From positions 21,230,347 to 21,294,346 of the forward strand of contig NC_012873.2 in the NCBI RefSeq assembly GCF_000003195.3: DNA of 64,000 nt, written 5' to 3'. This stretch comes from Sorghum bicolor (lineage: Eukaryota; Streptophyta; Magnoliopsida; Poales; Poaceae). The translations under genes and the position numbers were made by a program. The notes beneath the pieces were generated by a model. It ran no database searches, was not told the origin of the DNA, and saw nothing but the letters and a program-made list of their open reading frames with translations. Position 1 is the first letter of the stretch. Every line of letters begins with the position of its first letter. Of the stretch, positions 3,540-53,305 are shown piece by piece.

Positions 3540-4604
3540 CAACATATATGTGCATCAGCTAACTCTTGATCCTTCCAAGACGTTGTTCAAGAACATGCTA
3601 GTGAAAAAGGACCTGAACTTCTGGATCCCCTGGAAGGCTTATCTTTCACCAGCAGTGATGATGACGTTGTCCCCATCCCAGGCAATATTCCAGAAGTTTT
3701 CTCAGGTAACACTACATAGTTGCCGATAAGATAAACTCTTTTCCGTAAACTAACTTATCTTTATGAATCCAGATCTCCAACTTCTTGAAGTCACTTCATC
3801 AGCTATTCCTAGCTCTACCATGGTCTCAGTGGAAAAGGTATGTCAAAACCACTTATTCTTATCTACTAATATCTTCTGATAAACACTAATCTGTTTACCT
3901 TGACACAGGAACAAGTTTCTTCACCTGATCTGCCATTATCCTTAGAGGAATATCTTGATGAAGAACCAATCCTAATCTTAGAAGATACACCTCCAACCAT
4001 ACCTGATCACATCAAAGCTCAATTGCAAAGACTAATTAACCATCTGGAGCTGAATATTTCAACCTTGATTCAGGATGCATCATCTATTAGAGAGATCTTC
4101 AACCAAATAATAAATGATCTCGCTTCCTTCTTGAAAGAAGTGATTCAGTCAGCTGCATTCTTGGAAGCTAATGGCCCTAAATTCTTCAATGCCGAATCTA
4201 GATTAACTGCTCGAGAAGCTTAGAAAAACTCAGCTACCGCCGAAGACCAATGCATCCAAGAAATCCTATCTGTTAAAAAGACAGTTGATCTCCTCAAAGA
4301 ATCCCCTGCCGAAATCAACAAGGATCTGGCTGCTCTTAATGAATAAAGGACACAACTATTAGCTCAGCTGAAGACTGTTGAAGATGCCATCAAACAGAAA
4401 GAAGAAGTTTTATCTCAAATCCCCGCATCTTTAGCCGATCAGAAAAAGAACATGACAACCTTGATGGCGAAGCTTGACAAAATCAAGCAAGACAAGAATG
4501 CCAAGATTCCTAGATCAGCTGAAGAAGACCAACAACAGATAGACGAAATAGATAGCATTAGGCTTTCAGCTTTAAATTCCATTAAGTCTGTTCTAAACAT
4601 GTAA
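3540..4604 (+). pseudogene. 3' exons of the antisense gene of element A (coiled-coil C-terminus)
   Basis: This is the plus-strand remnant of the extra gene that Tat-type element A carries opposite to its gag-pol. Three exons can be read: about 3585-3705, 3773-3837 and 3909-4604. They have a GTAACA donor after 3705, acceptor AG before 3773, GTATGT donor after 3837 and CACAG acceptor before 3909. Intron phases are 1 and 0, the same as at the corresponding positions in element E (44597/44674 and 44762/44835). The last exon encodes an acidic, then coiled-coil-forming protein with in-frame stops at 4221 and near 4344, ending at TAA 4602. The N-terminal half, expected to carry the plant-mobile-like domain, is missing because element 1 abuts here. 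Confidence 0.65.
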
Positions 4605-4964: not shown

Positions 4965-4972
4965 TATAAATA
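4965..4972 (+). promoter_or_regulatory. TATA box of the second antisense gene in element A
   Basis: TATAAATA follows a C-rich stretch and precedes a pyrimidine-rich leader and the coiled-coil ORF starting near 5100. It parallels the TATA box at 42110 that precedes the antisense gene of element E. The assignment rests on motif and position only. Confidence 0.45.
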
Positions 4973-5089
4973 ATACTAGAGCTTCAAGCGTAAAAGTCAC
5001 ACAGTCAGACTTGCATCTTCATCCTTTCGATCTCCAAACCTCCTGCCTTCTCTCCCAGAAACCCTAAGCTTCCAAACAACGGCGGACAA

Positions 5090-5979
5090 TAGAGGCAAGC
5101 GTCCGGCATTGCCTTCCTCATATGAGGACGTGAACTCTGCTCAGCATAGGCATCTGGATAGGTATTCTAACTAATGCAGTTCTTCAGTTAGTGTCATCTT
5201 GATCAACTATTCATTCTTTGTTCTTCTTGTAGCGCTACCCCCAAGTTAATATTGGGGCAGGCCCGAGCCATCCTGCTCCAGCTGCATCAACATCCTCTTT
5301 GCCCCCGACAGCAGTGGCCTTTGAGGAAGCTGCTGCAAGCCAGGCAGCCGAGGCGAGCCAGGCAGGCTCAGAGCTAGTTGGCGACAAAGATGCCGCTGAC
5401 TACGACGCTGTCTTCGGGCACGAAGACGCTGTCTTCCGAGGAGTGCAAGAGGTTCCACCGCTTCCAGGAGCAGCTCAATGCTTTGGAGGCGGTGTTATCT
5501 AACACCAAGGGATCCTTGGCCGAAATCAAGGAACAGTTAGCAGAGTCTGACTCTACAGTCGTCAGTAAGTTCATTCTCTCTGCATCTTTTCAATAGATTG
5601 ACTAATCTGCTGATACATCTGTTTGTCGATCACAGGGTTGCAGGAGCAGTTCAACACCCTCTCCCCCGCCATCTCTGTGGTCACCGGGATGGTGAACGTG
5701 CGCGGGGAGACCCTGGTGGAGCGCCTCTAGGACGTGCCTGATCGCATCCGGGAGATCATGCTCCATGGCGTCCGCTTAGGAGCAGCAGGCACGTTGGCAG
5801 CTGCCTAGCTCCGCCACTGAGCCCAGCTCTCAAAGCACCTTGCTCTGAACTTTGTCGAAGAATGCAACGACGAAGATTTTGATGAGCTGGTGGAGGAGTT
5901 CACCCGCTGTGCCGGTGCAATGGTACAGGTGTCATCATCAATAGACATCATTAGCCGTGTCTTCGACGATGAGGATTAG
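5090..5979 (+). pseudogene. Second antisense coiled-coil gene of element A, decayed
   Basis: Plus-strand exons can be read at about 5380-5566 (motif SSEECKRFHRFQEQLNALEA, strong heptad pattern) and 5636-5979, joined by an intron with a GTAAGT donor and CACAG acceptor. Earlier small exons between 5090 and 5370 are likely but uncertain. The C-terminal part (FVEECNDEDFDELVEEF) ends at TAG 5977 and resembles coiled-coil tails of proteins annotated in grasses as gypsy-type transposon proteins. In-frame stops interrupt the second exon (near 5728 and 5806). It sits between the first antisense remnant and the end of pol at 6332, so element A had two antisense coiled-coil segments where E has one. Function unknown. 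Confidence 0.5.
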
Positions 5980-6331
5980 TTTTAGTTTTTTATTTTTAAA
6001 TCAATGTAAAAACTCCTCTAGATGAATCAAGAACACTGCCCTTGAGGCAGTTTATCCCATTTTGTTTTGATGATCCACTTGTCCTTGCTTTTTCTATGAC
6101 ATTATCCATCGAGGCAATTCTTAACATAATCCTATATGAACAAAAACTTTTCATGATTTTTTGTGCTAAAGTGAAATCTGTGATATCGGCTGTGAAATTA
6201 CAGTTCTGAACACTTCAACAAAATAGACACTGCATAAATCTCTTTAACTGTCCAAAACTCCTAATTTTAAAGATGAAGGCAATACTCACTGTATTGGCTA
6301 TCAAAAAGACTTCTTTGTGCAACTTGATCGA

Positions 6332-31329: not shown

Positions 31330-31374
31330 CGTGGTCACCGTTTGTGAAGGCTTAACAACCTCGGTGCTCAAATT

Positions 31375-33459
31375 ATGGCTCAAATAGTGTTCAACCATGT
31401 TGGGGGCAAACCACCGTTCTTTGATGGCACAAGCTCTTTTGACTATTGGAAGAGAAAAATGAAGATGTACCTTGGATCAGTCAATGATAGAGTGTGGGAA
31501 GTCACGGAGAATGACTTTGTGATCCTTGACCCCGCTAACCCCACCGACAATGAGAGAGCAAACAAGCAATGCAATACTATGGCTCTCAACACAATATACA
31601 ATGGCATTGATTCAAAGGTGTTTGAGCAAGTCAAAGATCTTGAGAAGGCTAGTGAAGTGTGGACAAGGCTTGAAGAAACATATGAGGGCACTACAACGGT
31701 AAAAAGTGCCAAGTTGTACATGCTCAAGGACAAGCTTTCAAACTTCAAGATGAAGGATGATGAGTCAATCCCGGAGATGTTCTATAGGCTCCAAGTCATC
31801 ATCAATGATCTCAAGGGCCTTGGTGAGAAAGTGAAGGATGAGGACTTCATTCACAAGTTCTTGATGTGCTTGCCCAAGAGGTTCAAGACATTGAGAACAA
31901 TCATCTTTAGAGGTGGATTGACCGGTGTATCTCCAAATGAGGTACTTGGAGATGTCATGACCGAAGATCAATACAATGACAATGATGATGATGAGGTCAT
32001 GAAGAAGGATGATGATGACAAGAAGAAAAGGAGTGTAGCATTCAAAGCTAACTCTTCATCCAAGAGCAAGAACAAGGGCAAGGCCAAGAAGGAAGAATCA
32101 AGTGATGAGGAGTGCTCCAATGATGACAGTGATGATGAAGCACTAGCACTCTTCGTCCGCAAGTTTGGCAAGATGATGAAGAAGAAGGGCTATCACACAA
32201 GAAAGAGAAGAGATCACTTCAAGAACAAGGAGCATGTGAGGCTATGCTATAAGTGTAAGAGCCCCGATCATATTGTGGCGGATTGTCCTTACAATAGTGA
32301 CAATGATGAGCATGATAAGAAGAACAAGAAAGAGAAGAAAGAAAAGAAAGAGAAGAAGATGGTCTTCAAGAAGAAGAAGAAGGGTGGATCCTATGTTGTG
32401 ACATGGGATAGTGATGCTTCTTCGGATGATGATTCTAGTGATGATGACAAGTCATCCAAGAAGAAGGCGCTTGCAAGCATTGCTATCAACAACAAGCCAT
32501 CACTCTTCGACACTCCTTCATGCTTCATGGCCAAGGGCCACAAGGTACAATATGATGAGAGTGAAAGTGAAAGTGAACATGAACATGATAGTGATAGTGA
32601 TGATGAAAATTAATTCACTAATGAACAACTCATGGACATGTTAGAACAAGCCGATTCTCTCATTCAATCTAAAAACAAGAAGTGCAAAGAATTGGCCAAG
32701 AAGTTAAAAGCTCTTGAGCAATCCTTTGATGAGCTCAATGCTAATCATGAGAGGCTAGTGGAAGCCCATGAGAAGCTTGGCAAGGCTCACACCAAGCTTG
32801 AGAAAGCTCACTCCTTGTTGTTAGAAGAGAACAAGGAAAAGGTTGTTGTATCATGTGATGTGGGCACAACATGTGACTTAATTAAAGAATCACCCAACCC
32901 ACCTATTGTTGTTGCCACTAACTCTTCATGTAGGCCTTCATCCACCACCATCAACTCTACCTCTACTTCTAGTGTTAGTGTCATTTGTGATACCTCACTA
33001 AAGGTTGAGAATGAGACTCTCAAGAGAGAGGTGGATGAGCTCACTCACGCCCTAGGCAAAGCCTATGGTGGTGAGGCCCGCTTGCTAAAGTGCTTGGGTA
33101 GCCAAAGGTTTTCTCTCAACAAAGAGGGATTAGGCTATACCCCCAAGAAGGGCAAGAAAGCCTTTGCAACTCACAAGCCTAGCTTTGTGAAGAGCAATGG
33201 TCGGTATTGCAACAAATGCAAGCTAGTTGGGCACCTAGAGCATAATTGCAACAAAATTAACAAGAACAAGAAAAATGCTAATGTACCTTACATTCCTTTT
33301 GATTCTTGTTATGTGCTTACCAAGGGTGAGAAGGGTGTGCATGCTAAGTTTGTTGGTACACCAATTGTGGGTCCAAAGAAGAAGGCCATTTGGGTACCAA
33401 AAAGCTTAGTCACTAACCTCCAAGGACCCAAGCAAGTATGGGTACCTAAGAAACATTGA
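31375..33459 (+). pseudogene. Gag of copia element F, one internal stop
   Basis: ATG at 31375 opens 412 codons: a UBN2/DUF4219-type gag core (residues about 10-200; PPFFDGTSSFDYWKRKMKMY), a Lys/Asp/Glu-rich tail, and a CCHC zinc knuckle CYKCKSPDHIVADC at residues 291-304. TAA at 32611-32613 ends it. The same frame continues without shift from 32614 to TGA at 33457-33459, encoding a coiled coil (LKALEQSFDELNANHERL) and a second zinc knuckle CNKCKLVGHLEHNC (33208-33249). A single-codon change most simply explains the break, so the whole is one gag-type protein of about 694 codons split by a stop. Gag coats the RNA genome inside virus-like particles. Confidence 0.85.
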
Positions 33460-33471
33460 TTTGTTTTGTAG

Positions 33472-36400
33472 GTAAACTATAAAGCCGGAGGAAGGCATTG
33501 GGTGCTTGATAGTGGGTGCACACAACACATGACCGGTGATTCAAGAATGTTCAATTCAATCAATCAAAATGATGATCATGGTGTTGATAGTATCACATTT
33601 GGTGACAATGGCAAAGGCAAGGTCAAAGGGCTTGGTAAAATTGCTATATCTAATGACTTGAGCATTTCCAATGTGCTACTAGTAGAGAGCTTGAACTTCA
33701 ACTTGCTATCTGTAGCTCAACTTTGTGATCTTGGTTTCAAATGCATATTTGGAGTTGATGATGTAGAGATCATAAGTGTAGATGGCTCCAACTTGATATT
33801 CAAAGGCTTTAGATATGAGAATCTATACTTAGTTGATTTCAATGCTAGTGAAACTCAATTATCAACATGCTTGCTCACTAAATCTAGCATGGGTTGGTTA
33901 TGGCATAGAAGGCTTGGTCATGTTGGAATGAAACAATTAAACAAATTAGTCAAGCATGATCTTGTTAGAGGCTTGAAAGATGTCACATTTGAGAAAGACA
34001 AGCTTTGTAGTGCATGTCAAGCCGGAAAACAAGTAGGCAACACTCATCCAAAGAAGAGCATCATGAGCACATGCAAGGCATTTGAGTTGTTGCACATGGA
34101 TCTAATTGGACCAACCACATACACAAGCATTGGTGGAAATAAATATGGATTTGTGATAGTGGATGATTTCACAAGATATACATGGGTATTCTTTCTTAGT
34201 GACAAGAGTGATGCTTTTGCAACCTTCAAATCATTTGTCAAGAGAATACACAATGAGTTTGAAACAACCATCAAGAAAGTAAGAAGTGACAATGGGAGTG
34301 AATTCAAGAATACTAGAATTGATGAGCTTTGTGATGAATTTGGCATTAGGCATCAATTCTCGGCCAAGTACACTCCACAATCAAATGGTCTTGTTGAGAG
34401 GAAGAATAGAACCTTGATTGACATGGCAAGATCAATGTTGAGTGAATACAATGTGAGTCATTCTTTTTGGGCCGAAGCAATCAACACGGCTTGCTACTAT
34501 AGCAACCGACTCTATTGTCACCCAATGATGGAGAAGACACCATATGAGCTCTTGAATGGAAGAAAGCCCAACATTGCATACTTTCGGGTTTTTGGTTGCA
34601 AATGCTACATATTGAAGAAAGGCACTAGATTAAGCAAATTTGAAAAGAAATGTGATGAAGGCTTCCTGCTTGGTTACTCCACTACTAGCAAAGCTTATAG
34701 AGTGTGGAATTTGGCTAGTGGTACTCTTGAGGAGGTGCATGATGTTGAGTTTGATGAAACCAATGGCTCTCAAGAGGAAGAAGAAAATCTAGATGATGTG
34801 AGAGGCACTCAATTGGCTGATGCAATGAAGAATATGGACATTGGTGATTTAAGGCCTAGAGAGGTGATTGATGTTGAAGATGATAAAGATCAAGTGCTTC
34901 CTACCTATAATGTGCAAGCTAGTGGTTCTCATGACCAAAATCAAGCTAGTACAAATGGTACTCAAGTGCAAGATCAACAAGCCAGTACATCATCTCATGA
35001 TCAACCAAGTGCAAGCAATCAAGTGCAAATACTCCAACCAACAAATATTGCAAGAGATCATCCATTGGACCATATCATAGGTGATATTCAAAGAGGAGTG
35101 CAAACTAGATCAAGACTAGCATCATTTTGTGAGCATTTCTCCTTTGTGTCTCACATTGAGCCAAAGAAGATTGATGAAGCATTGAGAGATGTTGATTGGG
35201 TTAATGCTATGCATGAAGAGCTTAACAATTTCAAGAGAAATCAAGTATGGGAGTTAGTTGAGAGACCTAGTGATCATAATGTCATTGGTACTAGATGGGT
35301 CTTTCGCAACAAACAAGATCAAGATGGGATAGTTGTAAGGAACAAAGCAAGATTGGTAGCACAAGGTTACACTCAAGTTGAAGGTCTTGACTTTGGTGAA
35401 ACATATGCCCCGGTTGCAAGATTGGAAGCAATTAGGATCTTGTTGGCCTATGCTTGTGCTCATAACATCAAGCTATACCAAATGGATGTCAAGAGTGCAT
35501 TTCTCAATGGCTATATCAATGAAGAAGTATATGTTGAGCAACCTCCCGGTTTTGAAGATGACAAGAAACCCAACCATGTTTACAAGCTAAGAAAGGCATT
35601 GTATGGTTTGAAGCAAGCACCTAGAGCATGGTATGAGAGATTGAGAGATTTCTTACTCTCTAAAGGTTTCAAGATGGGCAAGGTTGACACCACTCTCTTC
35701 ACCAAGAAGATTGGCAAAGACTTGTTTGTGTTGCAAATCTATGTTGATGATATTATATTTGGATCAACCAATCAAGAATTTTGTGAGGAGTTTGGCAACA
35801 TGATGGCTAATGAATTTGAGATGTCAATGATTGGAGAGCTTAGTTACTTCCTTGGTCTTCAAATCAAGCAATTGAAAAATGGCACATTTGTTAGTCAAGG
35901 CAAGTACATAAAAGACATGCTCAAGAAGTTTGGTATGGATGATGCAAAATCAATTAGCACACCAATGGGAACAAATGGAAGCCTAGACAGTGATACAAGT
36001 GGAAATATGGTGGATCAAAAGTTGTATCGGTCCATGATTGGAAGCCTACTCTATGTGACCGCATCAAGACCGGATGTCATGTTTAGTGTATGCATGTGTG
36101 CAAGATTCCAAGCCTCACCAAGAGAAAGTCATTTGAAGGCAACAAAGAGAATATTGAGGTACTTGAAGCATACACAAAATGTTGGTTTGTGGTATCCCAA
36201 AGGTGCAAAGTTTGAACTTGTTGGATATTCCGATTCGGACTATGCGGGATGCAAAGTTGAAAGAAGAAGCACATCGGGCACATGTCAACTATTGGGAAGA
36301 TCACTTGTCTCATGGTCATCCAAGAAGCAAAATAGTGTTGCATTATCAACCGCCGAAGCGGAGTACATTGCGGCCGGTAGTTGTTGTGCACAAATCTTAT

Positions 36401-36693
36401 GGATGAAGGCAACATTGAAGGATTTTGGAATCAACTTCAAACAAGTGCCCTTGCTATGTGACAATGAAAGTGCCGTGAAGCTCACCAACAATCCGGTTCA
36501 ACACTCAAGAACAAAGCACATAGATGTCCGCCATCACTTCATAAGAGATCATCAACAAAAAGGGGACATTTGCATTGAAAGTATAGGCACCGATGATCAA
36601 CTTGCCGACATATTCACCAAGCCACTTGATGAGAAGAGGTTTTGCAAGCTAAGGAATGAATTGAACATACTTGACTTCTCAAATATGTGTTGA
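33472..36693 (+). CDS. Pol polyprotein of copia element F
   Basis: Open with no stop for about 1073 codons, in the same frame as gag but separated by TGA 33457 and TAG 33469; no ATG lies before the protease. Order: aspartic protease ([12 protein letters not shown]), GAG-pre-integrase zinc region ([13 protein letters not shown] ... CSACQAGK), integrase core with [15 protein letters not shown] and GLVERKNR giving the D, D and E residues, reverse transcriptase ([19 protein letters not shown]), and RNase H ([36 protein letters not shown]). All catalytic motifs are present, so the enzyme set appears intact. How pol is expressed past the two stops (readthrough, splicing or internal initiation) is unknown. 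Ends at TGA 36691-36693. Confidence 0.92.
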
Positions 36694-40931: not shown

Positions 40932-41626
40932 TGTTGATGCAAAACTGATCTGCAAACACAAAGGGCTAATACCCGATTCAAATGCTAAGGCGTGCCAGCC
41001 GATTTGACCTTGCTATCGGCAAAGGTGATAACTCGAATACTTTAGTCCTGACAACAGCGATGCGCCCGGATGTCACGGCTAAGAGGTACTCACGCGGAAC
41101 TTGAGAACACGCCGAGCTTAAGTCGACGAATTCCTAAGAACTCGTAACAAAAGGAAAAGTATGACGAAGTCGTCGAAAAGTAAATGCTGGAATATGAGTA
41201 AAAACGTGTGTTTGATTCATTGATTGATTTTTTATTACAAGGCCCTAGGGTCTATATTTATACCCTGCTCAAAGAGCTACAACCAGACACGATTAGAATT
41301 CGAATTCCAAATTACACGGAATCCGTATACAAAACGATGCAAATAATTAAGGAAATAACAAAACTATCCCTCGTGACAAACCGAAACTCCTCCACATAAC
41401 GACCGGCAGCTTCCGGACTCCCTCTTTGCATCATCGGCAGACCCTTTGCCATAGTCATCGGCAAACTTTCTTATCTAGCCATCGGCACCATATTAGTGCC
41501 TGTGGACTTAGTCACGTTCAACTTCTCCCTCATCGGCAACCATCCTCATCGGCAACCCACTTTGTAAACATCGTACTGCCACCTTATCCTGCCATCCTAG
41601 ACACGTGCCCAAAAACGGTGTCAACA
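40932..41626 (-). repeat. 3' LTR of element E
   Basis: TGTTGATGC...GGTGTCAACA on the plus strand, 695 bp. Minus-strand TATA TATAAATATA at 41253-41262. Five differences from the partner at 52611-53305. Confidence 0.95.
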
Positions 41627-41640
41627 TATGCCCCCCAGTT
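41627..41640 (-). other. Polypurine tract of element E
   Basis: Minus-strand AACTGGGGGGCATA directly before the 3' LTR start TGTTGAC. Confidence 0.8.
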
Positions 41641-42109
41641 TCGGAGTATAAAACTATTAATGCTCCGAAATTCTCTACAGTAATGATGCCTTTTCCCGCA
41701 ATTAATGCTCCTAATCTGGTAACCGACAACCTCAATCTGAACAACTCTGATCCTATTCCTCCGCAGATTCCTCGAAATCCCCAACCTCCTAAACGGGCAT
41801 TTTTCTCAGTCGTACATCGGCAACAATACGGTTACAAAGATCTGTCGATGTTCTGACTAGGATATTCGCACAAACGGTTACTTCCCCTCTATCCGCCCAT
41901 CGGCAATATGACCGTTATAGAATATTGCCGATGGACCGACCAGGAGATCTCGCACAGTAAAATATCTTCAGATAATGACCGCTTCCCGTCAAATCACCTG
42001 CACAATCCCTGGATTACCATGCGAACAGTTACCATATCCACCTGAGTACCCTCGGATTTCTCGGATGCGGCAAGGAGATAAGTCGGATTTGCCCTTGCCC
42101 ATTTTGTCC

Positions 42110-42117
42110 TATAAATA
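42110..42117 (+). promoter_or_regulatory. TATA box of the antisense gene of element E
   Basis: TATAAATA preceded by GTCC and followed by a pyrimidine-rich leader, 150 bp upstream of the ATG at 42267. It points opposite to the LTR promoter. Element A has a similar box at 4965. Confidence 0.6.
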
Positions 42118-42266
42118 GTTCCTTCTTGGGTACTCCTTCCCCATCACACCATTCTACTACCCAACTTTACTTTTCCAGCGGCGGCGCCACCAAAAACTCC
42201 TAAGGTCTCCGACAAGTACCCCTCTTCACCAACTCCGGCGCCTTCACACGCTTCCTTCGCAGCAAG

Positions 42267-45200
42267 ATGGCCGTCGGGTTCGTCGTCCCTGAGGTCAAAT
42301 CTCCACCTCGTCTTCTGTATTTTTCTTCATATCCCTGTTCACTCGCATTTCATTTTACTGAACATCTTCCTTTTCTTTCCTCTTTGTATTTCTTTTTACG
42401 CCCAAAATCACTAGGAATTGTCCAACAAAATTGTCATCCCCACCGATCAACCACACCTTCAATGTCTCGGCCCTCTAGGGGACCCAGATCTAACTGACCT
42501 TATCAACGCAGAAACCAACAGGGTCCCCTTCAGAGCCGAAAATTTTTCCTTAGATCTGTGGAAGGACACCTTCCGCTCTTGGCCCAGCCCAACTGTAGGG
42601 TGGAAAGACTGGTTCTTGAGGGTCAGCAACTCTAATGAAGTTCAGTGGGGTGAAAGGAATCTAGCCCAATGCATTAGATTGTCCATTGCCGATATGCATA
42701 GGAACGAGTCACTGCTGATAGCTGCATCCTACTTTTGGTCAGACACCCTCAATGCTTTTGCCTTTGGCCACGGCCCTGCTTCTCCTACTCTTGCCGATGT
42801 AGCCATGCTTACTGGTCTAGATATATCTTCTGCCGATAGCACCCACTTTTTTGATACTGCCCCTAGTGCCAAAGTGGAGACAAGCGCTATCGGCGGTTGG
42901 TCGGGGTACATTCAGAAGTACCATGGGAAAGGATCTGTCACCATAAAGGAACAAACCACCTTTCTGAACATGTGGCTGGACAAGTTTGTATTCTGTGGTC
43001 GATCGGCAGGACCGACTTCTGTCTACCTATCGGCAGCAGAAAGACTGGCTAACGGTGGCCGATTCCCTCTCGGCCGATACTTGCTTGGCGCTGCTTACCA
43101 CCTTCTCCATCTAGTAGCCCAGAAACTTCTGCTCGGCCAATCCACTGGCAACTTGGGAGGCCCCTGGTGGTTTGTCAACATGTGGCTCAATCTGCATCTG
43201 CACAAGCGTCTCAACTTCAACCTGTTCACACAGCGTTTCCCAAGAGATATAGCTGAAAACCATGTATTGGGTGAAGAGGAATCGGCAACACGCGCCCCCT
43301 TGAACTTTGGCGAAGCTGTCAAAGTTCTGCCTGGTTCAGGGGGTAATCCGGATCAGATCGGCCGATTTTTCCAGACTCTGTATGAGGGTTTGACCAGAGA
43401 CGAACGACCATGGTTGGCTTATGATGACCCAGATAGCATGCTCCCTCTGACCTTCAATCCATTTGATGAAGCTCTCGACAGGGACAATGAGGTGATGATG
43501 GCAATTGTGACTCCCAGAATCATTCCAGTGAATTTCTTTGGTAGCACAAAAACCTCCCCTCAAACTTACGAATTTTACAATCCATCGGCATTAGCTCGCC
43601 AGTTAGCTTTCGGCCAGTTGCCGATTGCACTTCCTTATGCCGATGTGATAAAACCTAGAGAAACTATCAACAACCTTCTTGAGTGGACTCGAGCAGCCCA
43701 ACTACCACCAAACGCCGATATAGATGTAGATCTGTCAGAATAGGTTCCGGCTGCTTTTATCACTCAGGCATACAAGTCATGGTGGGCAGAATGGAAAGAG
43801 CATCTATTCTGCAGATCGGCACTTTCATACCGCGGCATGATTGACTCCGAATACGAAGTTCCCGATGACACTGTAAGTAACTCAAACCAACGTTTCATTT
43901 TCTCAATATTACCTCCATCGGCAGCTTACCCTTGTATTCCTTTTGCAGGTTGACAATATTCCTCCATTGGTTAGCAGGAGTGGCAGGCCGATCGACTTGT
44001 TTCCATCAGGCCCGATTTCCTCAATCGGCCACAATGCTCCCACTCTAGCTTCCATCGTGCATCGGGGTGTACGCCTCAGGAAAGTCACCACCAGAAGAAC
44101 CCAGACATCACCCACGGTTGCTGTTCCCACTCTTGCGCGGGCTTTCAAGGCAATTTGTCAAATCTTTTCCTTTATGCTGACTATCTTTATATCGGCTATA
44201 TTTATGCTTATAAACTCTTGTTCATTATTGTAGCAAACCGGCGCATCGGCGAAAGCCAGGTGTGAGAGTACCGATGCCCCCCAGTCTAGCCAACCCAAGA
44301 GAAAGGGCACCACGGGTGCTAAGACTGGAACAAAGCGCCAGAAGGTAGCAACTCCCCCTCCTCCTCCGGTATCTCCAATTTCGGTGGAGTCTTCTCCTTC
44401 TTCTCCAGAAGCCCAGCCACAGCAAGCACCATCTCCCCCACCTATGCAGGAAGCACCACAGATAGAAGAACCCCAACAGGAAGGATCTCAAACAGAAGAT
44501 ACATCAGCTGACATGGGTGAACAAACAACTGGCCCGGTGGGTCCAGTTATACCATCGGCAGTTCTCCCGATTCAGACAACCGTTGTCCCTCCTCCAGGTA
44601 ACATACTTTAACATCTTCGCTACCGATGAACTTATTCTTATTTAGTCTCACAACTCCTTTTGTCTTCTTTCAGTTGATATCGTTCCATCGGCAATCTCAG
44701 CCGATCAACCTGTAGCTCCATCGGCACTTCTCAGTCAAAGGCAAGAGATCGCCTTGAAGCAAGTAAGTCACCGTTTACCGTTAGCACTATTTGCCGATTC
44801 TCTGAGTATGAGCTAATTTTGCTTTCCCTCCCAGGAACAAGATTCTCCCGATAGCCTGTTCTCCTTCGCCATCGATCTCTCTGAAGAAGAAGGTGAGAAG
44901 CAAGCTCTTCTCAGACGGTCGGCATCACATCGGCAGAGATCAGGGTCAGGCTGGAAGAATTGTCAGCTCTCCTTCACCAGGACACAGCGCAATTGGTTGA
45001 TGATTCCGACCCTACCAAGACCCTGTTCAGAACTCTCAGAGGCCAAATCCCAGCCGATGTTGAAGAAATCCTGTTCCAAGCTGCTCATCTGGAGAGTCGC
45101 CAGCTGCAGTACCAATGAGCTTCTCGGCGGCTTGCCGATAGAGCCGCTCAGACTCAACTCTCCGATGAAATGAGGAAAGAGAAGCTTTTGACCGACGAGA

Positions 45201-45528
45201 AGCACAAGAACATCGGTATCCTGAGATCTTCTGGAGACGCGCTGAAGCAGAAGATATCCGATCTATTGGCAAGAAAAGAATCCCTGTTGGCGGAGCTCAA
45301 GGAAGTAGAGAACGCTCTGTCCCAAGCCCAACAGGAAGAGAGCCAATTGCCAGAGACCATCAGGCTTCTTGAGCACGAGCGAAATGCTCATGGTCGCAAA
45401 GCACTTCAACTGAAGAAGAAGCTGAAGCCGATAGAAGGTTCTGCCGATGATGACATCAAGGAGATAGAAGCAGCCAACCAAATTCGGCTACGCGCTATAT
45501 CGGCAATCCAGACGCTGCTTAACACATA
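42267..45528 (+). pseudogene. Spliced antisense gene of element E: plant-mobile-domain-like plus coiled coil
   Basis: Predicted exons: 42267-42293, 42415-43872, 43949-44149, 44234-44597, 44674-44762 and 44835-45528; phases fit at every junction. Exon 2 encodes a region resembling the plant mobile domain (LLIAASYFWSDTLNAFAFGH, then TLADVAMLTGLD). Exon 4 is Ser/Pro/Gln-rich with a basic KRK stretch, and exon 6 is a long coiled coil. Damage: in-frame TAG 43741-43743, a frame change between about 44835 and 44940, and TGA 45117-45119. The intron after 44149 uses GC instead of GT. The gene runs towards the gag-pol 3' end, with stop codons only about 155 bp apart. Related domains occur in host proteins of the MAIN/MAIL type and in Tat-element extra ORFs; the role here is unknown. 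In-frame decay means this copy is probably not functional. Confidence 0.75.
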
Positions 45529-45682
45529 GAGTTTCCATCGGCATTGTATCTGCGCTTTCCTGCTTCCTCAGCTTTTAGTCTAGCCGATAGGACTGTTATC
45601 GGCACCTAAACTTTTGAAACACCAAGTCTTGTCCCCAAGCATTTGGATCCAGCCGATAGCAGTGTTATCGGCACCTAAACTT

Positions 45683-48600
45683 CTATGCATCGACCCATAT
45701 ACTGGGGTAGTACTTCTTTAAATATTTGCCGTTTAATGCTCTGGGAAATTCAATTCCTTCGAGGGTTTCTAGAATTTAGGCATTACCAGGAGCCGATCGA
45801 CTTATTCGATAAGGACCCTCCCAATTAGGAGACCACTTTCCAAACTTCAAACTTTTGGTCCCAATTGGTAAAATTAGTTTCCATACCAAATCCCCATCGG
45901 CAAACTCTTTAGCCTTCACTTTCTTATCATACCATCTAGCAACTCTCTTCTTATTTTCTTCTATACTCATTAAAGCTTTTAACCGATGCCCTGCTAGATC
46001 GTCCAATTCATCGGTCATCAACGTGGCATAACCAACGGAAGTTAATTGATCTTGAAAAGATAATCGCCTAGATCCAGCCTTAATTTCCCAAGGCAACACT
46101 GCATCATGTCCATACACCAATTGATAGGGTGATACCTTGGTCGATCCATGACAAGCCATCCGATAAGACCACAATGCTTCATTTAATAATGTATGCCACC
46201 ACTTAGGATTTTCTTCAATCTTTCGTTTAATAAGCTTGATAATTCCTTTGTTAGACGCTTCGGCCTGCCCATTGGCTTAAGCATAATAAGGAGAAGAATT
46301 CAACACTTTAATTCCCATACCGATTGCGAATTCATCGAACTCCCCCGATGTGAACATGGTGCCCTGATCGGTAGTAATCGTTTGGGGAATCCCAAATCGG
46401 TAAATAATATGCTCCTTCACAAAATCAATCATATTGGCCGATGTGACTTTCTTCAAAGGAATAGCTTCAACCCACTTAGTGAAATAGTCAGTGGCAACTA
46501 GAATGAACTTATGCCCTTTGCTAGATGGTGGATAAATCTGGCCGATCAGATCGATGGCCCATCCCCGGAACGGCCAAGGCTTTATTATAGGATTCATAGC
46601 CGATGCGGGTGCTCTCTGGATATTACCAAACTTTTGACAACCTTGACATCCCTTGAAATATTTAAAACAATCTTCAAGTATGGTTGGCCAAAAATATCCA
46701 TTCCTTCGAATCATCCACTTCATCTTAAAAGCTGACTGATGCGCTCCACACACTCCTTCATGGATTTCCCCCATCAAACTTCTAGCTTCATCATCACCCA
46801 AGCATCGGAGAAGAATTCCGTCGATAGTCCGATAATACAATTCATTTTCAAGGAGCACATACTTGGTTGCTTGAAATCGAACCCGTCTTTCAACTTTTTT
46901 GGATGGATCTTTTAGATAATCAATAATTTCTTTCCTCCAATCACCGGCACCGACTGCCGATGTCACATTAATCATTGGCTGATATCCCGAGGCATGCTGA
47001 GCTAACCGATTAGCGTCTTCATTATGCAATCGGGGAACATGCTCCAATCGGAAATCCTTGAATTCCTTTAACAGTTGCATACTTCTCTCGAAATAAGTTA
47101 TGAGAACTTCACTTCGGCATTCATAGCTTCCGGCCAATTGATTTATAACCAACATAGAATCCCCGAATATTTCAACAGCATCAGCACGAACTTCTCTTAA
47201 CAACTCCAATCCCTTGATCAGAGCCTGATACTCAGCCTGATTATTTGTTGATGTGGCAACAATCGGCAAGGAAAACTCATACTTCCTCCCCTTAGGGGAA
47301 ACTAATACAATGCCGATTCCTGCCCCCCGGTCACAGGTAGATCCATCAAAGAAGAGCGTCCAGGGTACAATTTCCAAGGTTTCCACTAGACCGCAATGCT
47401 GAGTCACAAAATCGGCCATAATCTGCCCTTTGACAGCCTTAGCCGATTCGTAACGCAAATCGAACTCCGACAGCGCTAAAATCCATTTACCGATCCTACC
47501 ACTCATAATCGGCATAGATAGCATGTATCGGACCACGTCATCTTTGCAAACAACAGTGCATTCGGCCGATAACAGGTAATGTCTCAGCTTGATACATGAA
47601 AAATATAAGCATAAGCATAGTTTCTCAATGGCCGAATACCTGGTTTCAGCATCAATCAACCTCCTACTCAAATAATAAATTACCCTTTCTTTTCCTTCAA
47701 ATTCTTGAACTAAAGATGAACCGATAACCGATCCATCGGTAGATAAATACAATCTGAAGGGCTTCCCTTGTTGAGGTGGAACTAGAACTGGAGGGTTTAC
47801 TAGATACTTCTTGATTTCATCCAGAGCCAACTGCTGTTCTTCTCCCCAAATAAACTCTTGATCGGCTTTCAATTTAAGAAGAGGACTGAAAGCACGAATC
47901 CTACCAGACAAATTCGATATAAATCTCCTGATAAAATTTACCTTGCCGATCAAGGATTGGAGCTCGGTTTTGTTGGTAGGGGCCACTATTTTATTGATGG
48001 CATCAATAGATCTTCGACTAATTTCAATACCCCTCTGATGTACCATGAAACCAAGAAACTGCCCTGCCGATACACCAAATGCACACTTGTTGGGATTCAT
48101 CTTCAATCCATGCTTCCTTGTGCACTCTAACACTTTTTGTAAATCGGCAAGATGCTTTGAGAAATCTCCAGACTTAACCACCACATCATCAATATAAATC
48201 TCCACGAGCTTGCCGATGAACTCATGAAATATAAAATTCATAGCCCTTTGATAAGTAGCACCAGCATTCTTCAACCCAAAAGTCATGACTATCCATTCAA
48301 ATAGCCCAACATGACCAGGACACCTGAATGCGGTTTTTGGAATATCCTCCTCCGCCATGAATATTTGATTGTAACCTGCATTACCATCCATGAAGCTGAT
48401 GACCCGATGACCAGCCGCAGCATCAACCAGTAGATCGGCGACAGGCATTGGGTATCCATCCATCGGCGTAGCTTTATTGAGATTCCTGAAATCAATGCAC
48501 ACCCGAAGCTTCCCGTTCTTCTTGTAAACCGGAACAACATTGGAAATCCACTCGGCATACCGACACTGCCGAATAAACTTAGCTTCAATAAGTTTGGTGA

Positions 48601-48916
48601 TTTCGGCCTTAATATCCGGTAGAATGTTAGGATTACATCGGCGGGCTGGTTGCTGATGTGGCCGAAATCCAGACTTGATGGGTAACCGATGTTCAACAAT
48701 TGATCGGTCTAAACCAGGCATCTCGGTATAATCCCAAGCAAAGCAATCTTTATATTCCTTTAACAAACTAGTCAATTGTTGCTTACTCTCAGGATCCAAT
48801 TTAGCACTAATAAAAGTAGGCCTAGGCTTATCACCACTACCTATATCTACTTCTACCAAATCATCGGCCGATGTGAATCCCTGGCCTAATTTTCCATCAT
48901 CGGCGAATCTATCCAT
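45683..48916 (-). pseudogene. Pol of element E: RT, two RNase H domains, integrase
   Basis: The frame from 48916 encodes RT (VPVYKKNGKLRVCIDFRNL, YIDDVVVKSG), the original RNase H (around IYYLSRRLIDAETRYSAIEK), a second archaeal-like RNase H (LFFDGSTCDRGAGIG, NNQAEYQALIKGL, IFGDSMLVINQL) and integrase (zinc domain ending GCQGCQKFG; WAIDLIG and TTDQGTMF for the first two acidic residues). TAA at 46277-46279 falls just before the segment with the third catalytic acidic residue; the frame continues to a second TAA at 45776-45778 and ends at 45683. The first stop fits a CAA-to-TAA change. Element A gives the same order. The copy is inactive as it stands. Confidence 0.88.
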
Positions 48917-51900
48917 TAAAAACCGTCGTCAGAACCGACTGCTTGGATCGGTGGGATCTCATAATCGGCAACTTTGAGAAAATCTTTCTCCCAAACTTCT
49001 CCTGAAATGCACCTGGTCCTTTCGTAAGTATCCGCTTCTGCCGATGCGATAACATAAGAAGAATCTCCTGGGACAATCTCAATCTTGTCACCTACCCACT
49101 GAACCAAGCATTGATGCATTGTAGATGGGATACAACAATTGGCATGAATTCAATCTCTTCCCAATAATAAGTTGTAAGCACCTTTTCCGCTGATCACGAA
49201 AAAAGTTGTCGGCAAGGTTTTGCTGCCGATGGTCAACTCTGCACATATCGCCCCCTTGACTGGAGACACGTTTCCTTCAAAATCTTTGAGCATCATATCG
49301 GTCTTGGTCAAATCTTGATCCCCTTTCCCAAGCTTCCGATATACTGCATACGGCATAATATTAATAGCAGCTCCACCATCAACTAGGATCTTGGTCATTG
49401 GCTGCCCATCAACCCTTCCTTTGAGGAACAGAGCTTTAAGATGCTGCCTCTCGTCATTGGCAGGTTTCTCAAAGATAGCCGTCATCGGATCCAGAGCCAA
49501 CTGAGCTATCTGATCAGAAAATTCCAACTCATCATCACTGGCTGGTGCAAGAAACTCCATCGGCAACATGAAGACCATGTTGACGCCTGCCGATGGACCT
49601 TCCCTCTTAGTGTCTGACGGCTGCCGACTTCCAGAGTTCTCTCCCTTGTTTAGCTCTTCTTGCCTTTCACGTTGCAATCTCCTTTTCTGTGTTTTGGTTA
49701 ATCCTCCAGGGCACCATGGAGGAAGTGGCCTTTGCCTTGCCGTCGGGCGTCGGTTCTCCCTTGACTCCATACGATGCGTGTTAGCATCCCTGCAAAATAT
49801 GAATTCATCGGGAACCCGCGCATCAGCCATTTCCTCGAGCTCTTCTTGGTTCCTGGGAAAATGCTGGACACGGTCACTAAGTCTGTCGTGCCCACTAAAT
49901 CTGCCCCCCAGCCGGTCATGAACTGACACCCTTCCTCTGATCGGCCCATTAAATCGCCGTTCATCATCATGATAATGCCGATCGATCCTATCGTACCGAT
50001 CATAACCGTTGCACTCAGGGCAGTCTCTGACGGTAGGAAGCTTGATATTTTCCTCCCAACAATGGATGAAGAATGGACAATTCCAATGATCCCTGTGCCG
50101 ATTCCACTCCTGTCGGCGTCTTTCTTCTTCCCGTCGATAATCTTCCTGCTGGCGCCGATACCGATCTTCCCGTTGTTGCCATTTTTCTCGAGGCCTTCTA
50201 TGAGTTATGACGATACCAGATCGAGGAAGCCTTCCTGAGCTAGTTCCTTCCTGGACCAAGCCCTTACTTCTTGCATCGGCAGTAGTAACTTGATGCTGAG
50301 GATCTACCGATGCACTCTTCTCAGCTGTCTCCGATGTTAAGACCTTAGCCTTCCCCTTAGCATCCAACATGTTTGTCGGGAAAGGATGTTGGTCTATCTT
50401 CAACGGCTTCTGGGCTTTGGAACTGTCAAACTTGATTCTCCCTGACTCTATAGCCGATTGCAGCTGCTGTCTGAATACTTTGCACTCGTTGGTGTCATGG
50501 GAAGTTGCATTATGCCACTTGCAATATCTCATCCTCTTCAACTCTTCTGCCGATGGGATCACATGGTTAGGTGACAGTTTGATCTGACCTTCCTGAAGTA
50601 GAAAGTCAAATATCCTATCAGCCTTAGCGGTGTCAAAAGCAAACTTCTCTGGTTCCTTCTGCCCAAAAGGACAAGACATCGGCTTCTTGTTTTTTACCCA
50701 CTCTGCCAAGCCGATTACTGGTTCTTCATCAGAATCTGAGCTTGTTGCTTCATCGACAAATGACACTTTCCTATTCCATGCTCTTTTAGGCTCGAAAGGC
50801 TTGATGTCTTGATCAGAAATCCTCTGCACCAAATGACTTAAACTTTCGAACTCCTGAGAGGCATACTTATCCCTGATATGTGGCAACAAACCCTGGAAAG
50901 CCAAATCGGCTAGCTGCCGATCATCCAGAACCAAGCTATAGCATTTATTCTTGACCTCTCGTATCCTCTGCACAAAACCCTCAACCGACTCATCATTGCG
51001 TTGCCTCAACTTGACCAAGTCGGTGATCTTCTTCTCATGAACCCCCGAGAAGAAGTATTTGTGGAATTGCTTCTCTAGATCGGCCCAAGTAATTACTGAG
51101 TTGGGAGGTAATGATATGAACCAAGTAAAGGCCGATCCAGACAATGATGATGAAAATAGACGAACCCTCAATTCGTCCCTGTTACCAGCCTCTCCACATT
51201 GAATGATGAACCTGTTGACATGCTCCATGGTTGACGTATCGTCCTGCCCGGAAAACTTTGTAAAATCCGGTACCTTGTACCGATGTGGAAGCGGGATCAA
51301 ATCATACGCGGGAGGATACGGTGTCCGATAAGAATAAGTGTTGACTTTGGGTTTTATCCCAAATTGTTCCCTCATTACTTCAGCAATCTTATCGGCCCAA
51401 TATGCATCGGCATCTTGCCGATGAGGCGGCTGCGGATCTGGCACTTGGTGGCGAACCTCCACGTGTCTGTTCGGGACGTGATCTGCACGGAACATTGTAT
51501 TGATCACCTGTCCTCCAATCTGCGGACCACCAAACTGCTGTCCACCGATTGGCTGTCCTCCGAGTTGCTGTCCAAAATTCATTGGCTGGTTGGGAATCCC
51601 CTGACCTTGGAACCCGGGATAGACCTGCCCTTGCTGGAACCCTGTAGTCTGGTAACTCTGCTGGGGCGATTGTGGAAAGGCTTGCTGTCCAAGCCATCCA
51701 TTATTAGCGTTCATCGACATAGGTGCTGCCGATGATTGGTAATTGGGTACCGTCGTTGAATTGACATACCCCGACTGGGCCATAGACCTCTGTTGCATCA
51801 GCATTGACTCTGCCGATGCGTTGGGCATCTGGAACATTGAATCTTGAGGATTTCCAGTGTGAGGCCTTGCAGTAGTAGTTGTGGTATACCGAGGACTCTG

Positions 51901-52638
51901 GTTCACCGGCGCATTGGGAGGTGCCGATGTCATAGGAGTTTTGCCCCTCATGTCAGTTATTTGTGATGTTCCCGGCGTCAACTCTGGAGGCATACCGTAA
52001 CCCCACCAGTTGGGAGGAAGAGTCAACCCTGACATTGCCGATGCCAACATATCTGTTGTCAGTTTATGCTGCCCAACTGAAATTTGTGGGTTGGTTGTCA
52101 TCGGCATAGATAGTGCACCAGTAGTCCCCGATGTACTTGGAGGGACGGCAGATTGTGCACTTGCAGTCGTCAAGGCAGCCGATGGAGCCGTGACCTCTGG
52201 TGCCGTTGGCTGATGATGGGAGGGGCCCACATAATCTGGTGGGATTTGTCCTTCCTTGAAAGTTCTTGCCACGGCATTGAAAACCGTATTAGACAGTACA
52301 CCAGCTTGGTTAATCAACGCTCGATTGATGGCATTGTCAACCATATCTTGGAGCTTGCCAGGATTGGCGTCAAAGGTAACCTGCCGTGGTGCCGGCAGTG
52401 CATCTTTCTGGACCACTTCGCCGCTCCTGTTTATGCTGAAAGACCTCAGGCATTGCTGCTTGAACTCTTCCATGGCTTGGGCAATAGCTTGCTTCTGCTC
52501 ATCCTTGAGGTTGGCCTCCGTCACGGGGATGACGTTCTCTTGATCGAGGTCAGAGATCGATATGTTGATCTTGATCTTGAATCCTGTCCCACCGGGCGTG
52601 CCAAAAGATGTGTTGATGCAAAACTGATCTGCAAACAC
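48917..52638 (-). pseudogene. Gag-protease of element E
   Basis: An open frame of 1162 codons from ATG 52638 to TGA 49150-49152. Order: Gln/Pro/Ser-rich N-terminus of about 400 residues, retrotransposon gag core (SGSAFTWFISLPPNSVITWA), a CKWHNATSHDTNEC zinc-like motif, an Arg-rich linker with CPFFIHC and CPECN, and retropepsin with the active-site motif LVDGGAAINIMP. The TGA fits a Trp codon changed to stop; the frame then runs on to TAA near 48917, where the RT frame takes over with a shift. The first ATG lies inside the 5' LTR and the frame stays open across the primer site, so the real start may be further in. Gag forms particles and the protease cuts the polyprotein. Confidence 0.85.
52586..52603 (-). 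other. Primer binding site of element E
   Basis: Plus-strand GTCCCACCGGGCGTGCCA, i.e. TGGCACGCCCGGTGGGAC in the element's direction, seven bases from the LTR end. It has the CCA-ending form of a tRNA 3' end; I do not assign the tRNA. Confidence 0.75.
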
Positions 52639-53305
52639 AAAGGGCTAATACCCGATTCAAATGCTAAGGCGTGCCAGCCGATTTGACCTTGCTATCGGCA
52701 AAGGTGATAACTCGAATACTTTAGTCCTGACAACAGCGATGCGCCCGGATGTCACGGCTAAGAGGTACTCACGCGGAACTTGAGAACACGCCGAGCTTAA
52801 GTCGACGAATTCCTAAGAACTCGTAACAAAAGGAAAAGTATGACGAAGTCGTCGAAAAGTAAATGCTGGAATATGAGTAAAAACGTGTGTTTGATTCATT
52901 GACTGATTTTTTATTACAAGGCCCTAGGGTCTATATTTATACCCTGCTCAAAGAGCTACAACCAGACACGATTAGAATTCGAATTCCAAATTACACGGAA
53001 TCCGTATACAACACGATGCAAATAATTAAGGAAATAACAAAACTATCCCTCGTGACAAACCGAAACTCCTCCACATAACGACCGGCAGCTTCCGGACTCC
53101 CTCTTTGCATCATCGGCAGACCCTTTGCCATAGTCATCGGCAGACTTTCTTATCTAGCCATCGGCACCATATTACTGCCTGTGGACTTAGTCACGTTCAA
53201 CTTCTCCCTCATCGGCAACCATCCTCATCGGCAACCCACTTTGTAAACATCGTACTGCCACCTTATCCTGCCATCCTAGACATGTGCCCAAAAACGGTGT
53301 CAACA
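52611..53305 (-). repeat. 5' LTR of element E
   Basis: 695 bp, TGTTGATGC...TGTCAACA. Minus-strand TATA TATAAATATA at 52932-52941, placing transcription start about 300 bp before the inner LTR end. Confidence 0.95.

What the first reader, a model, noticed from the sequence alone, without database searches (positions are those of the whole stretch)
42110..45528. Spliced antisense gene with its own promoter inside a gypsy element, with intron positions and phases conserved in a second element
Seen: in E a TATA box, six exons with phase-consistent junctions, and a plant-mobile-domain-like plus coiled-coil product on the strand opposite gag-pol. In the degenerate element A (3585-4604) the last introns have matching donors (GTAACA both times), the same phases (1 then 0) and homologous exon starts (GAACAAG). 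Known: Tat-lineage elements such as Grande and Retand carry antisense extra ORFs. Inference: the element maintains an intron-containing, separately transcribed gene, perhaps to counter host silencing, since PMD proteins of the MAIN/MAIL type affect transposon silencing in Arabidopsis.
Basis: partly seen in the sequence, partly recalled or inferred. Interest (0 to 1): 0.75.

Follow-up and report, generated by a model that had tools for sequence, protein, structure and literature searches.

The report
Spliced antisense gene inside a retrotransposon
A family of jumping DNA in a grass genome (probably sorghum) carries, on the strand opposite its own replication genes, a six-exon gene with a promoter-like signal that evolution has kept, although the copy in this window is itself broken and what the protein does is not yet known.

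Summary
Element E (40932-53305, minus strand; 695-nt LTRs with 5 differences, 5-bp target duplication) is a Tat-type Ty3/gypsy element with a + strand gene between pol and the 3' LTR: TATA, ATG, six exons. Exon 2 is a plant mobile domain (PF10536, 7e-16), exon 4 carries a bipartite-NLS-like motif, exon 6 a coiled coil with a sub-threshold DUF1409 match. In database relatives, exon matches end and restart within one residue of the predicted sites in 64 of 75 junction rows. One protein (P0276) crosses junctions 4 and 5 with both introns gone; 8 of 8 genomic loci of its family that I checked keep them. Between two families of this genome dN/dS is 0.06-0.28 by exon, against 0.10 for integrase. Element A shares the last two intron positions and phases. 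Antisense ORFs, an own promoter and gypsy-encoded PMDs were known; I did not find the conserved multi-exon gene described. Transcription and the anti-silencing role are untested.

The parts
40932..53305 (-). Element E, Tat-type Ty3/gypsy element; LTRs 40932-41626 and 52611-53305 (695 nt each, 5 differences), target duplication GCTCC on both sides
42110..42118 (+). TATA box (TATAAATAG), 484 nt inside the 3' LTR edge
   Evidence: CCTATAAATAGTT in 47 of 49 family copies; identical TATA in 2 of 3 second-family copies, one change in the third
42267..42293 (+). Exon 1, start codon and MAVGFVVPE
   Evidence: relatives P0009 and P0013 read MAxxFxVPE, then a variable intron 1, then exon 2
42415..43872 (+). 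Exon 2, plant mobile domain (PF10536 at residues 84-264 of the 442-aa open stretch); broken here by an in-frame stop at 43741-43743
43949..44149 (+). Exon 3; followed by an intron with a GC donor
44234..44597 (+). Exon 4, Pro/acidic linker with a bipartite-NLS-like motif KRKGTTGAKTGTKRQK
   Evidence: a basic bipartite pattern in 28 of 34 relatives, 25 of them at this place; the 34 were picked by a pattern that itself asks for a short basic run
44674..44762 (+). Exon 5 (33 nt shorter here than in the 29 other copies aligned)
44835..45529 (+). Exon 6, DUF1409-like stretch and coiled coil, to the stop codon; frame broken near the start and in-frame stop at 45116-45118 in this copy
45776..48928 (-). 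pol: RT, RNase H, second RNase H, integrase; in-frame stop at 46277-46279 in this copy; the frame ends at 45776, convergent with the antisense gene
49150..52644 (-). gag-protease ORF (stop to stop), 221 nt apart from pol
3585..4604 (+). Element A remnant of the same kind of gene: exon 4 tail, intron 4 (3706-3772), exon 5 (3773-3837), intron 5 (3838-3908), exon 6 (3909-4604, with two in-frame stops)

Best explanation
[quoted passage not shown] Shown: exon and intron structure and its conservation, splice-site and TATA conservation, purifying selection on the reading frame, one sequence with two introns precisely absent, breakage of the window copy. Inferred: transcription from that TATA; that the antisense orientation is why introns persist, because the genomic RNA carries only the reverse complement of the splice sites, so reverse transcription copies the introns; and that the protein enters the nucleus and acts in trans on expression or chromatin of family members, most likely by engaging the host PMD/PP7L silencing machinery or its targets.
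For: Junctions: 64 of 75 junction rows within one residue of prediction. P0276 joins exons 4-5-6 with both introns gone, while its exon 6 is 97-99% identical to many loci of this genome and 8 of 8 checked loci of that family keep the splice sites of introns 4 and 5 and an 80-nt intron 5. Selection: between-family dN/dS 0.13 (3' part of exon 2), 0.18 (exon 3), 0.28 (exon 4), 0.09 and 0.06 (two parts of exon 6), over 152-392 cross-family pairs; integrase C-term 0.10, exon 6 in the two wrong frames 1.75 and 1.76. Of 49 copies, 47 keep the TATA and 25 are open wherever covered; 86 of 95 scored copies have no stop in the PMD piece. NLS-like pattern in 28 of 34. Element A shares two intron positions and phases. 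MAIN/MAIL1 silence TEs, in a complex with PP7L (PMC5418596 and PMC7156037, passages).
Against: No RNA reads could be examined; P0276 is a single contig of unknown molecule type, and two other proteins that join exon 5 to exon 6 (P0296, P0299) are annotation gene models. Within the E family, exon and intron diversity are alike, exon 4 has pN/pS 0.62-0.66 and its shared variants look near neutral (27 of 42 amino-acid changing). Introns 2-4 differ between families by 0.18-0.21, less than dS of exons 2-4 (0.29-0.36). Three of 49 copies have lost the GT of donor 2 and at least two more lack it by deletion. Copies were picked by similarity to exon 2 or exon 6 and pairs are not independent. The DUF1409 match is below cutoff. 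The PMD model is poor (mean pLDDT 64) with no PDB match, so no biochemical step is shown.
Confidence: 0.62

Rival explanations
1. The gene is real and spliced, but the protein serves the replication cycle (nuclear import of the pre-integration complex, or RNA handling) rather than host silencing.
For: NLS-like motif and coiled coil; nuclear Grande GENE23 and the analogy with retroviral accessory proteins in PMC7264820 (parts 1-2 of 3 read); constraint in the range of integrase.
Against: The nearest domain relatives with known roles, MAIN/MAIL1, act in silencing (PMC5418596, passages). Nothing here tests either role.
Confidence: 0.3
2. The conserved product is the antisense RNA: its main role is to form dsRNA with genomic RNA or to interfere with convergent pol transcription.
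For: The antisense gene and pol are convergent, with stop codons 246 nt apart; the dsRNA role is discussed in PMC7264820.
Against: Purifying selection acts on amino acids in the spliced frame; the two wrong frames of exon 6 give 1.75 and 1.76.
Confidence: 0.08
3. Exons are separate ORFs or degraded remnants and the splice structure is a fitted artefact.
For: This copy has three breaks in the gene; two published surveys count single ORFs only (PMC6317226 passages, PMC11963269 text).
Against: Introns 1, 2 and 4 are not multiples of three yet exons on both sides are constrained; intron 3 is not a stop-free 84-nt stretch in any of 8 second-family copies; positions and phases of two introns recur in element A; P0276 lacks both introns exactly.
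Confidence: 0.04
4. P0276 is a processed DNA copy rather than RNA, so the only direct splicing evidence concerns a rare past event.
For: Its molecule type is unknown; the genome-wide junction pattern search did not complete; one search scored only 129 of 8298 candidates, and one of its hits reaching into exon 5 (G000:C7:55123772-55124512) could not be fetched.
Against: The two longest hits (L032, L033) keep their introns, and the unfetched hit has 91% identity, as expected if only its exon 6 part matches (inference). A processed copy would itself require splicing of the antisense transcript.
Confidence: 0.3

Closest known systems
Maize Grande gene23 (antisense accessory gene; as described in PMC7264820, the original paper not held)
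   Same: Antisense, between pol and 3' LTR, own upstream promoter, nuclear protein
   Different: PMC7264820 reports no clear domain similarity for such proteins and, in the parts read, mentions no introns in gene23. Sequence not on hand, homology untested
Retand lineage antisense ORFs with TRP28 (PF04195; PMC11963269)
   Same: Tat clade, long pol-3'LTR region, antisense coding
   Different: No PF04195 match in the E pieces scanned (exons 2, 3, 4, 6); PMD instead; five introns rather than a single ORF
Ogre elements with PMD (57% of Ogre elements, PMC6317226)
   Same: PMD; gag-protease and pol as two ORFs with a gap (221 nt here, 274 on average there)
   Different: Ogre's known intron lies in gag-pol, sense; here five introns lie in the antisense gene. 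RT placement not tested
PMD-A clades of gypsy-encoded PMDs (PMC5418596)
   Same: PMD encoded by gypsy elements of angiosperms
   Different: The passages read describe phylogeny, not exon structure, orientation or promoter; the authors did run a gene predictor (Fgenesh) on surrounding sequence, so multi-exon models may have been made
MAIN / MAIL1 host PMD proteins (PMC5418596, PMC7156037)
   Same: PMD family
   Different: Host genes of clade PMD-C that silence TEs; the element's gene adds an NLS-like linker and coiled coil
DUF1409 in Oryza gypsy consensus sequences (PMC9289625)
   Same: DUF1409-like stretch in exon 6
   Different: Reported there as a separate non-canonical domain; here it lies in the last exon of a PMD gene, below Pfam's cutoff

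Membership tests
Tat clade of Ty3/gypsy (Ogre/Retand part) | Second RNase H domain between RNase H and integrase | tested here: met
   RT_RNaseH 387-488, RVT_3 526-645, rve 785-881
Tat clade of Ty3/gypsy (Ogre/Retand part) | Placement in a reverse transcriptase tree | not tested
   no named reference RTs on hand
Retand lineage | Antisense ORF with TRP28 (PF04195) | tested here: not met
   no PF04195 in exon 2, 3, 4 or 6 pieces at E up to 1
Ogre lineage | gag-protease and RT-RH-INT as two ORFs with a gap | tested here: met
   221-nt gap
Ogre lineage | Primer binding site complementary to tRNA-Arg | not tested
   PBS region printed, not matched to tRNAs
PMD (PF10536) | Pfam gathering score | tested here: met
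   58.7 bits against 34.9
DUF1409 (PF07197) | Pfam gathering score | tested here: inconclusive
   17.1 bits in E, 21.7 in A, cutoff 29.2. Most of the 120 listed relatives carry PF07197 as a precomputed domain, but two of them rescanned here also fell below the cutoff (16.1 and 13.8 bits)
Grande gene23-type accessory gene | Antisense between pol and 3' LTR | tested here: met
Grande gene23-type accessory gene | Active own promoter | not testable with these tools
   TATA sequence conserved; no RNA data
Grande gene23-type accessory gene | Nuclear localisation | not testable with these tools
   only an NLS-like pattern, 28 of 34
Grande gene23-type accessory gene | Sequence homology to gene23 | not tested
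   gene23 sequence not on hand

The most novel reading that the evidence does not exclude
Grass Tat-lineage elements keep a five-intron nuclear gene by placing it antisense, and its PMD protein competes with or captures the host MAIN/MAIL1-PP7L silencing complex, a plant retrotransposon counterpart of a viral silencing antagonist; the orientation rule (introns persist when antisense to the genomic RNA) would predict more hidden spliced genes in retroelements.
Probability: 0.15. Interest if true: 0.85.

Novelty: new variant of a known kind. Interest (0 to 1): 0.52.

Why it matters
A December 2025 review (PMC12786077, passages) says plant LTR retrotransposons generally lack introns, naming Ogre and EVADE as exceptions, and two surveys of extra ORFs count single ORFs (PMC6317226: at least 250 codons; PMC11963269: at least 600 bp). 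A conserved gene with five introns would be missed or cut to its largest exon by such surveys. If the gene is expressed as predicted, it ties a gypsy-encoded PMD to a complete protein with a nuclear signal and coiled coil, and makes the question whether host PMD silencing proteins derive from, or answer, a retrotransposon protein directly testable.

Tried and rejected
Intronless copies in this genome: one search gave two long hits (L032, L033) that looked contiguous; the alignment showed both keep introns 4 and 5, so I dropped them, also from the family comparison. A third hit reaching into exon 5 (G000:C7:55123772-55124512) could not be fetched and stays unexamined. A hidden intron inside exon 6 to explain its frame: rejected, listed relatives read straight through there. 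Intron 3 as coding (84 nt and stop-free in 48 of 49 first-family copies): unlikely, 0 of 8 in the second family. In-frame dN/dS of single introns (0.33-1.36 by intron and frame) is too noisy to use either way. Structure: the PMD model is weak, Foldseek found nothing at E <= 0.001 in PDB, and a profile search of PDB sequences found nothing at E up to 1. One scan of viral contigs found no relative. An antisense-RNA-only role: disfavoured by frame-specific constraint. Literature: the listings and the papers opened from them showed me no multi-exon antisense gene in a plant LTR element; the two most relevant subscription papers (Gomez-Orte 2013, Steinbauerova 2011) are not held, so a report there cannot be excluded. 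The junction-pattern search of the genome did not complete.

Full report
What the window is. The tool places the window at G000:C4:21230347-21294346 of a 709-Mb assembly.

The element. E is bounded by 695-nt LTRs (40932-41626 and 52611-53305) with 5 differences in 695 (0.7%) and a GCTCC target duplication on both sides. On the minus strand it has a gag-protease ORF and, 221 nt on, a pol ORF with RT, RNase H, a second RNase H and integrase. The second RNase H between RNase H and integrase marks the angiosperm Tat clades Ogre and Retand (PMC6317226, passages). With a rate of 1.3e-8 per site and year (recalled) the insertion is about 0.3 million years old.

The gene. Exon 2 holds the plant mobile domain; exon 4 a Pro/acidic linker with KRKGTTGAKTGTKRQK; exon 6 a coiled coil with a DUF1409-like stretch (weak: 17.1 bits, cutoff 29.2). 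Four introns are GT-AG; intron 3 is GC-AG, with GC in 57 of 57 copies checked (49 of the first family, 8 of the second).

This copy is broken. Exon 2 has an in-frame stop, exon 6 a frame break and a stop, and integrase a stop. Intact copies exist: 86 of 95 scored family copies have no stop in the PMD piece (the window copy counts among the 86, since its stop lies just past the piece), and 25 of 49 are open through all exons as far as each locus reaches (exon 6 is covered for no more than 600 of its 694 bases in 30 of 57 loci of the two families). The claim that the element keeps the gene is therefore about the family.

Are the introns real? In the 352 database proteins listed by the three searches I located each exon of E by local alignment. 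Over 75 junction rows (3, 19, 26, 20 and 7 for introns 1 to 5; one protein can give several) the exon match ended and restarted within one residue of the predicted site in 64 (3, 17, 19, 18, 7). Exon identity is mostly 55-90%, while the sequence between, usually 23-43 residues, varies freely. P0276 (306 aa, one 1457-nt contig) runs through junctions 4 and 5 with nothing between but the one residue of the split codon that phase 1 predicts at junction 4. Its exon 6 is 97-99% identical to many loci of this genome. Eight of eight loci of that family checked keep the splice sites of introns 4 and 5 and an 80-nt intron 5; L031 was also aligned through both introns. That fits a spliced transcript, or a processed copy, which also needs splicing. 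P0296 (sorghum) and P0299 (Miscanthus) also join exon 5 to exon 6 but are annotation models. Most rows are unspliced reads of genomic DNA: 3 of 3 at junction 1, 19 of 19 at junction 2, 25 of 26 at junction 3 (the other is P0299, unclear there), 19 of 20 at junction 4 (one of them, P0292, with a deletion), 4 of 7 at junction 5. So splicing of introns 1-3 has no direct support here.

Splice sites in copies. Among 49 E-family copies GTAAGT at donor 2 is kept in 41, the weakest site; three have lost its GT and at least two more lack it by deletion. The other donors and the acceptors are kept in 46 or more.

Is it under selection? Between the E family (49 copies) and a second family (8 copies), mean dN/dS is 0.13 for the 3' part of exon 2, 0.18 exon 3, 0.28 exon 4, 0.09 and 0.06 for two parts of exon 6 (dS of the last is saturated at 1.29). 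With 20 of the 49 copies the four stretches repeated give 0.14, 0.19, 0.27 and 0.06, integrase C-term gives 0.10, and exon 6 in the two wrong frames 1.75 and 1.76. Introns 2-4 differ by 0.18-0.21 (less than dS of exons 2-4, 0.29-0.36) and intron 5 by 0.51. Within the E family exon and intron diversity are alike (0.7-2.7% against 1.5-2.9%), as expected for young copies. Within-family pN/pS is 0.14-0.20 except exon 4 (0.66); with 20 copies the 3' part of exon 2 gives 0.32 and exon 4 0.62. Variants shared by two or more copies change the amino acid in 2 of 17 cases in exon 3 and 12 of 46 in the exon 6 coiled coil, against roughly 7 in 10 expected under neutrality, but in 27 of 42 in exon 4: exon 4 is close to neutral within the family. 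Copies were picked by exon 2 or exon 6 similarity, so those exons are biased; exons 3 and 4 are not.

Promoter. CCTATAAATAGTT is kept in 47 of 49 E-family copies and the TATA in 2 of 3 second-family copies, the third with one change. In that comparison identity to E is 79-82% from TATA to ATG and 77-79% in intron 1 against 89-90% in exon 2; the stretch from LTR edge to TATA is 83-94% identical, so the TATA is not an island of conservation. This is sequence evidence only.

Element A. Introns 4 and 5 of A have the positions and phases of E (exon 5 of 65 and 89 nt, both 2 modulo 3), with coiled coils 25% identical and a DUF1409-like match in A too (1.7e-4 but below cutoff). So these two introns predate the split of A and E.

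How it works. The introns are in the antisense gene, so the genomic RNA carries only their reverse complement and would not lose them by splicing; this explains how an intron-bearing gene survives retrotransposition (inference). The product has PMD, NLS-like motif (28 of 34 relatives, 25 at the same place; the 34 were picked by a pattern that favours basic runs) and coiled coil, pointing to a nuclear, probably oligomeric accessory factor. MAIN and MAIL1, host PMD proteins, silence TEs and form a complex with PP7L (PMC5418596, PMC7156037, passages), and clades PMD-A1/A2 are encoded only by gypsy elements (PMC5418596). That makes action on the host PMD pathway the leading guess, not a result.

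What is known. Antisense ORFs between pol and 3' LTR, an own promoter and nuclear protein in Grande (PMC7264820, parts 1-2 of 3 read; original not held), TRP28 in Retand (PMC11963269, parts 1-3 of 5 read), PMD in gypsy elements (PMC6317226, PMC9289625, passages) and DUF1409 in Oryza gypsy consensus sequences (PMC9289625, passages) are all in print. I found no paper describing the multi-exon structure (search; listings and the papers named), but two key subscription papers could not be read.

Noticed in passing
4965-5980: Between A's coiled-coil exon and its integrase end lies what looks like a second + strand gene: TATAAATAA, short coding stretches with candidate introns; three pieces scanned gave no Pfam match above cutoff.
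   Followed up: partly
44150-44233: Intron 3 has a GC donor in 57 of 57 copies checked in this genome, while 21 of 26 database rows read V after exon 3, consistent with GT.
   Followed up: partly
48929-49149: A 221-nt gap separates the gag-protease and pol ORFs, like the Ogre gap known to be a partly spliced intron.
   Followed up: no
46277-46279: Integrase of E carries an in-frame stop although the LTRs differ at only 5 of 695 positions.
   Followed up: partly
related protein P0296 (contig the size of C8): A sorghum gene model named HSP70 BIP3 contains exon 3, 5 and 6 pieces of this gene fused to an HSP70 part: exon capture or an annotation artefact.
   Followed up: no
31348-36693: A copia-type element with long open gag-like and 1073-aa pol-like ORFs lies on the + strand (type judged by eye).
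   Followed up: no
45570-45682: Two direct repeats of about 45 nt (87% identical) just past the antisense gene's stop.
   Followed up: no
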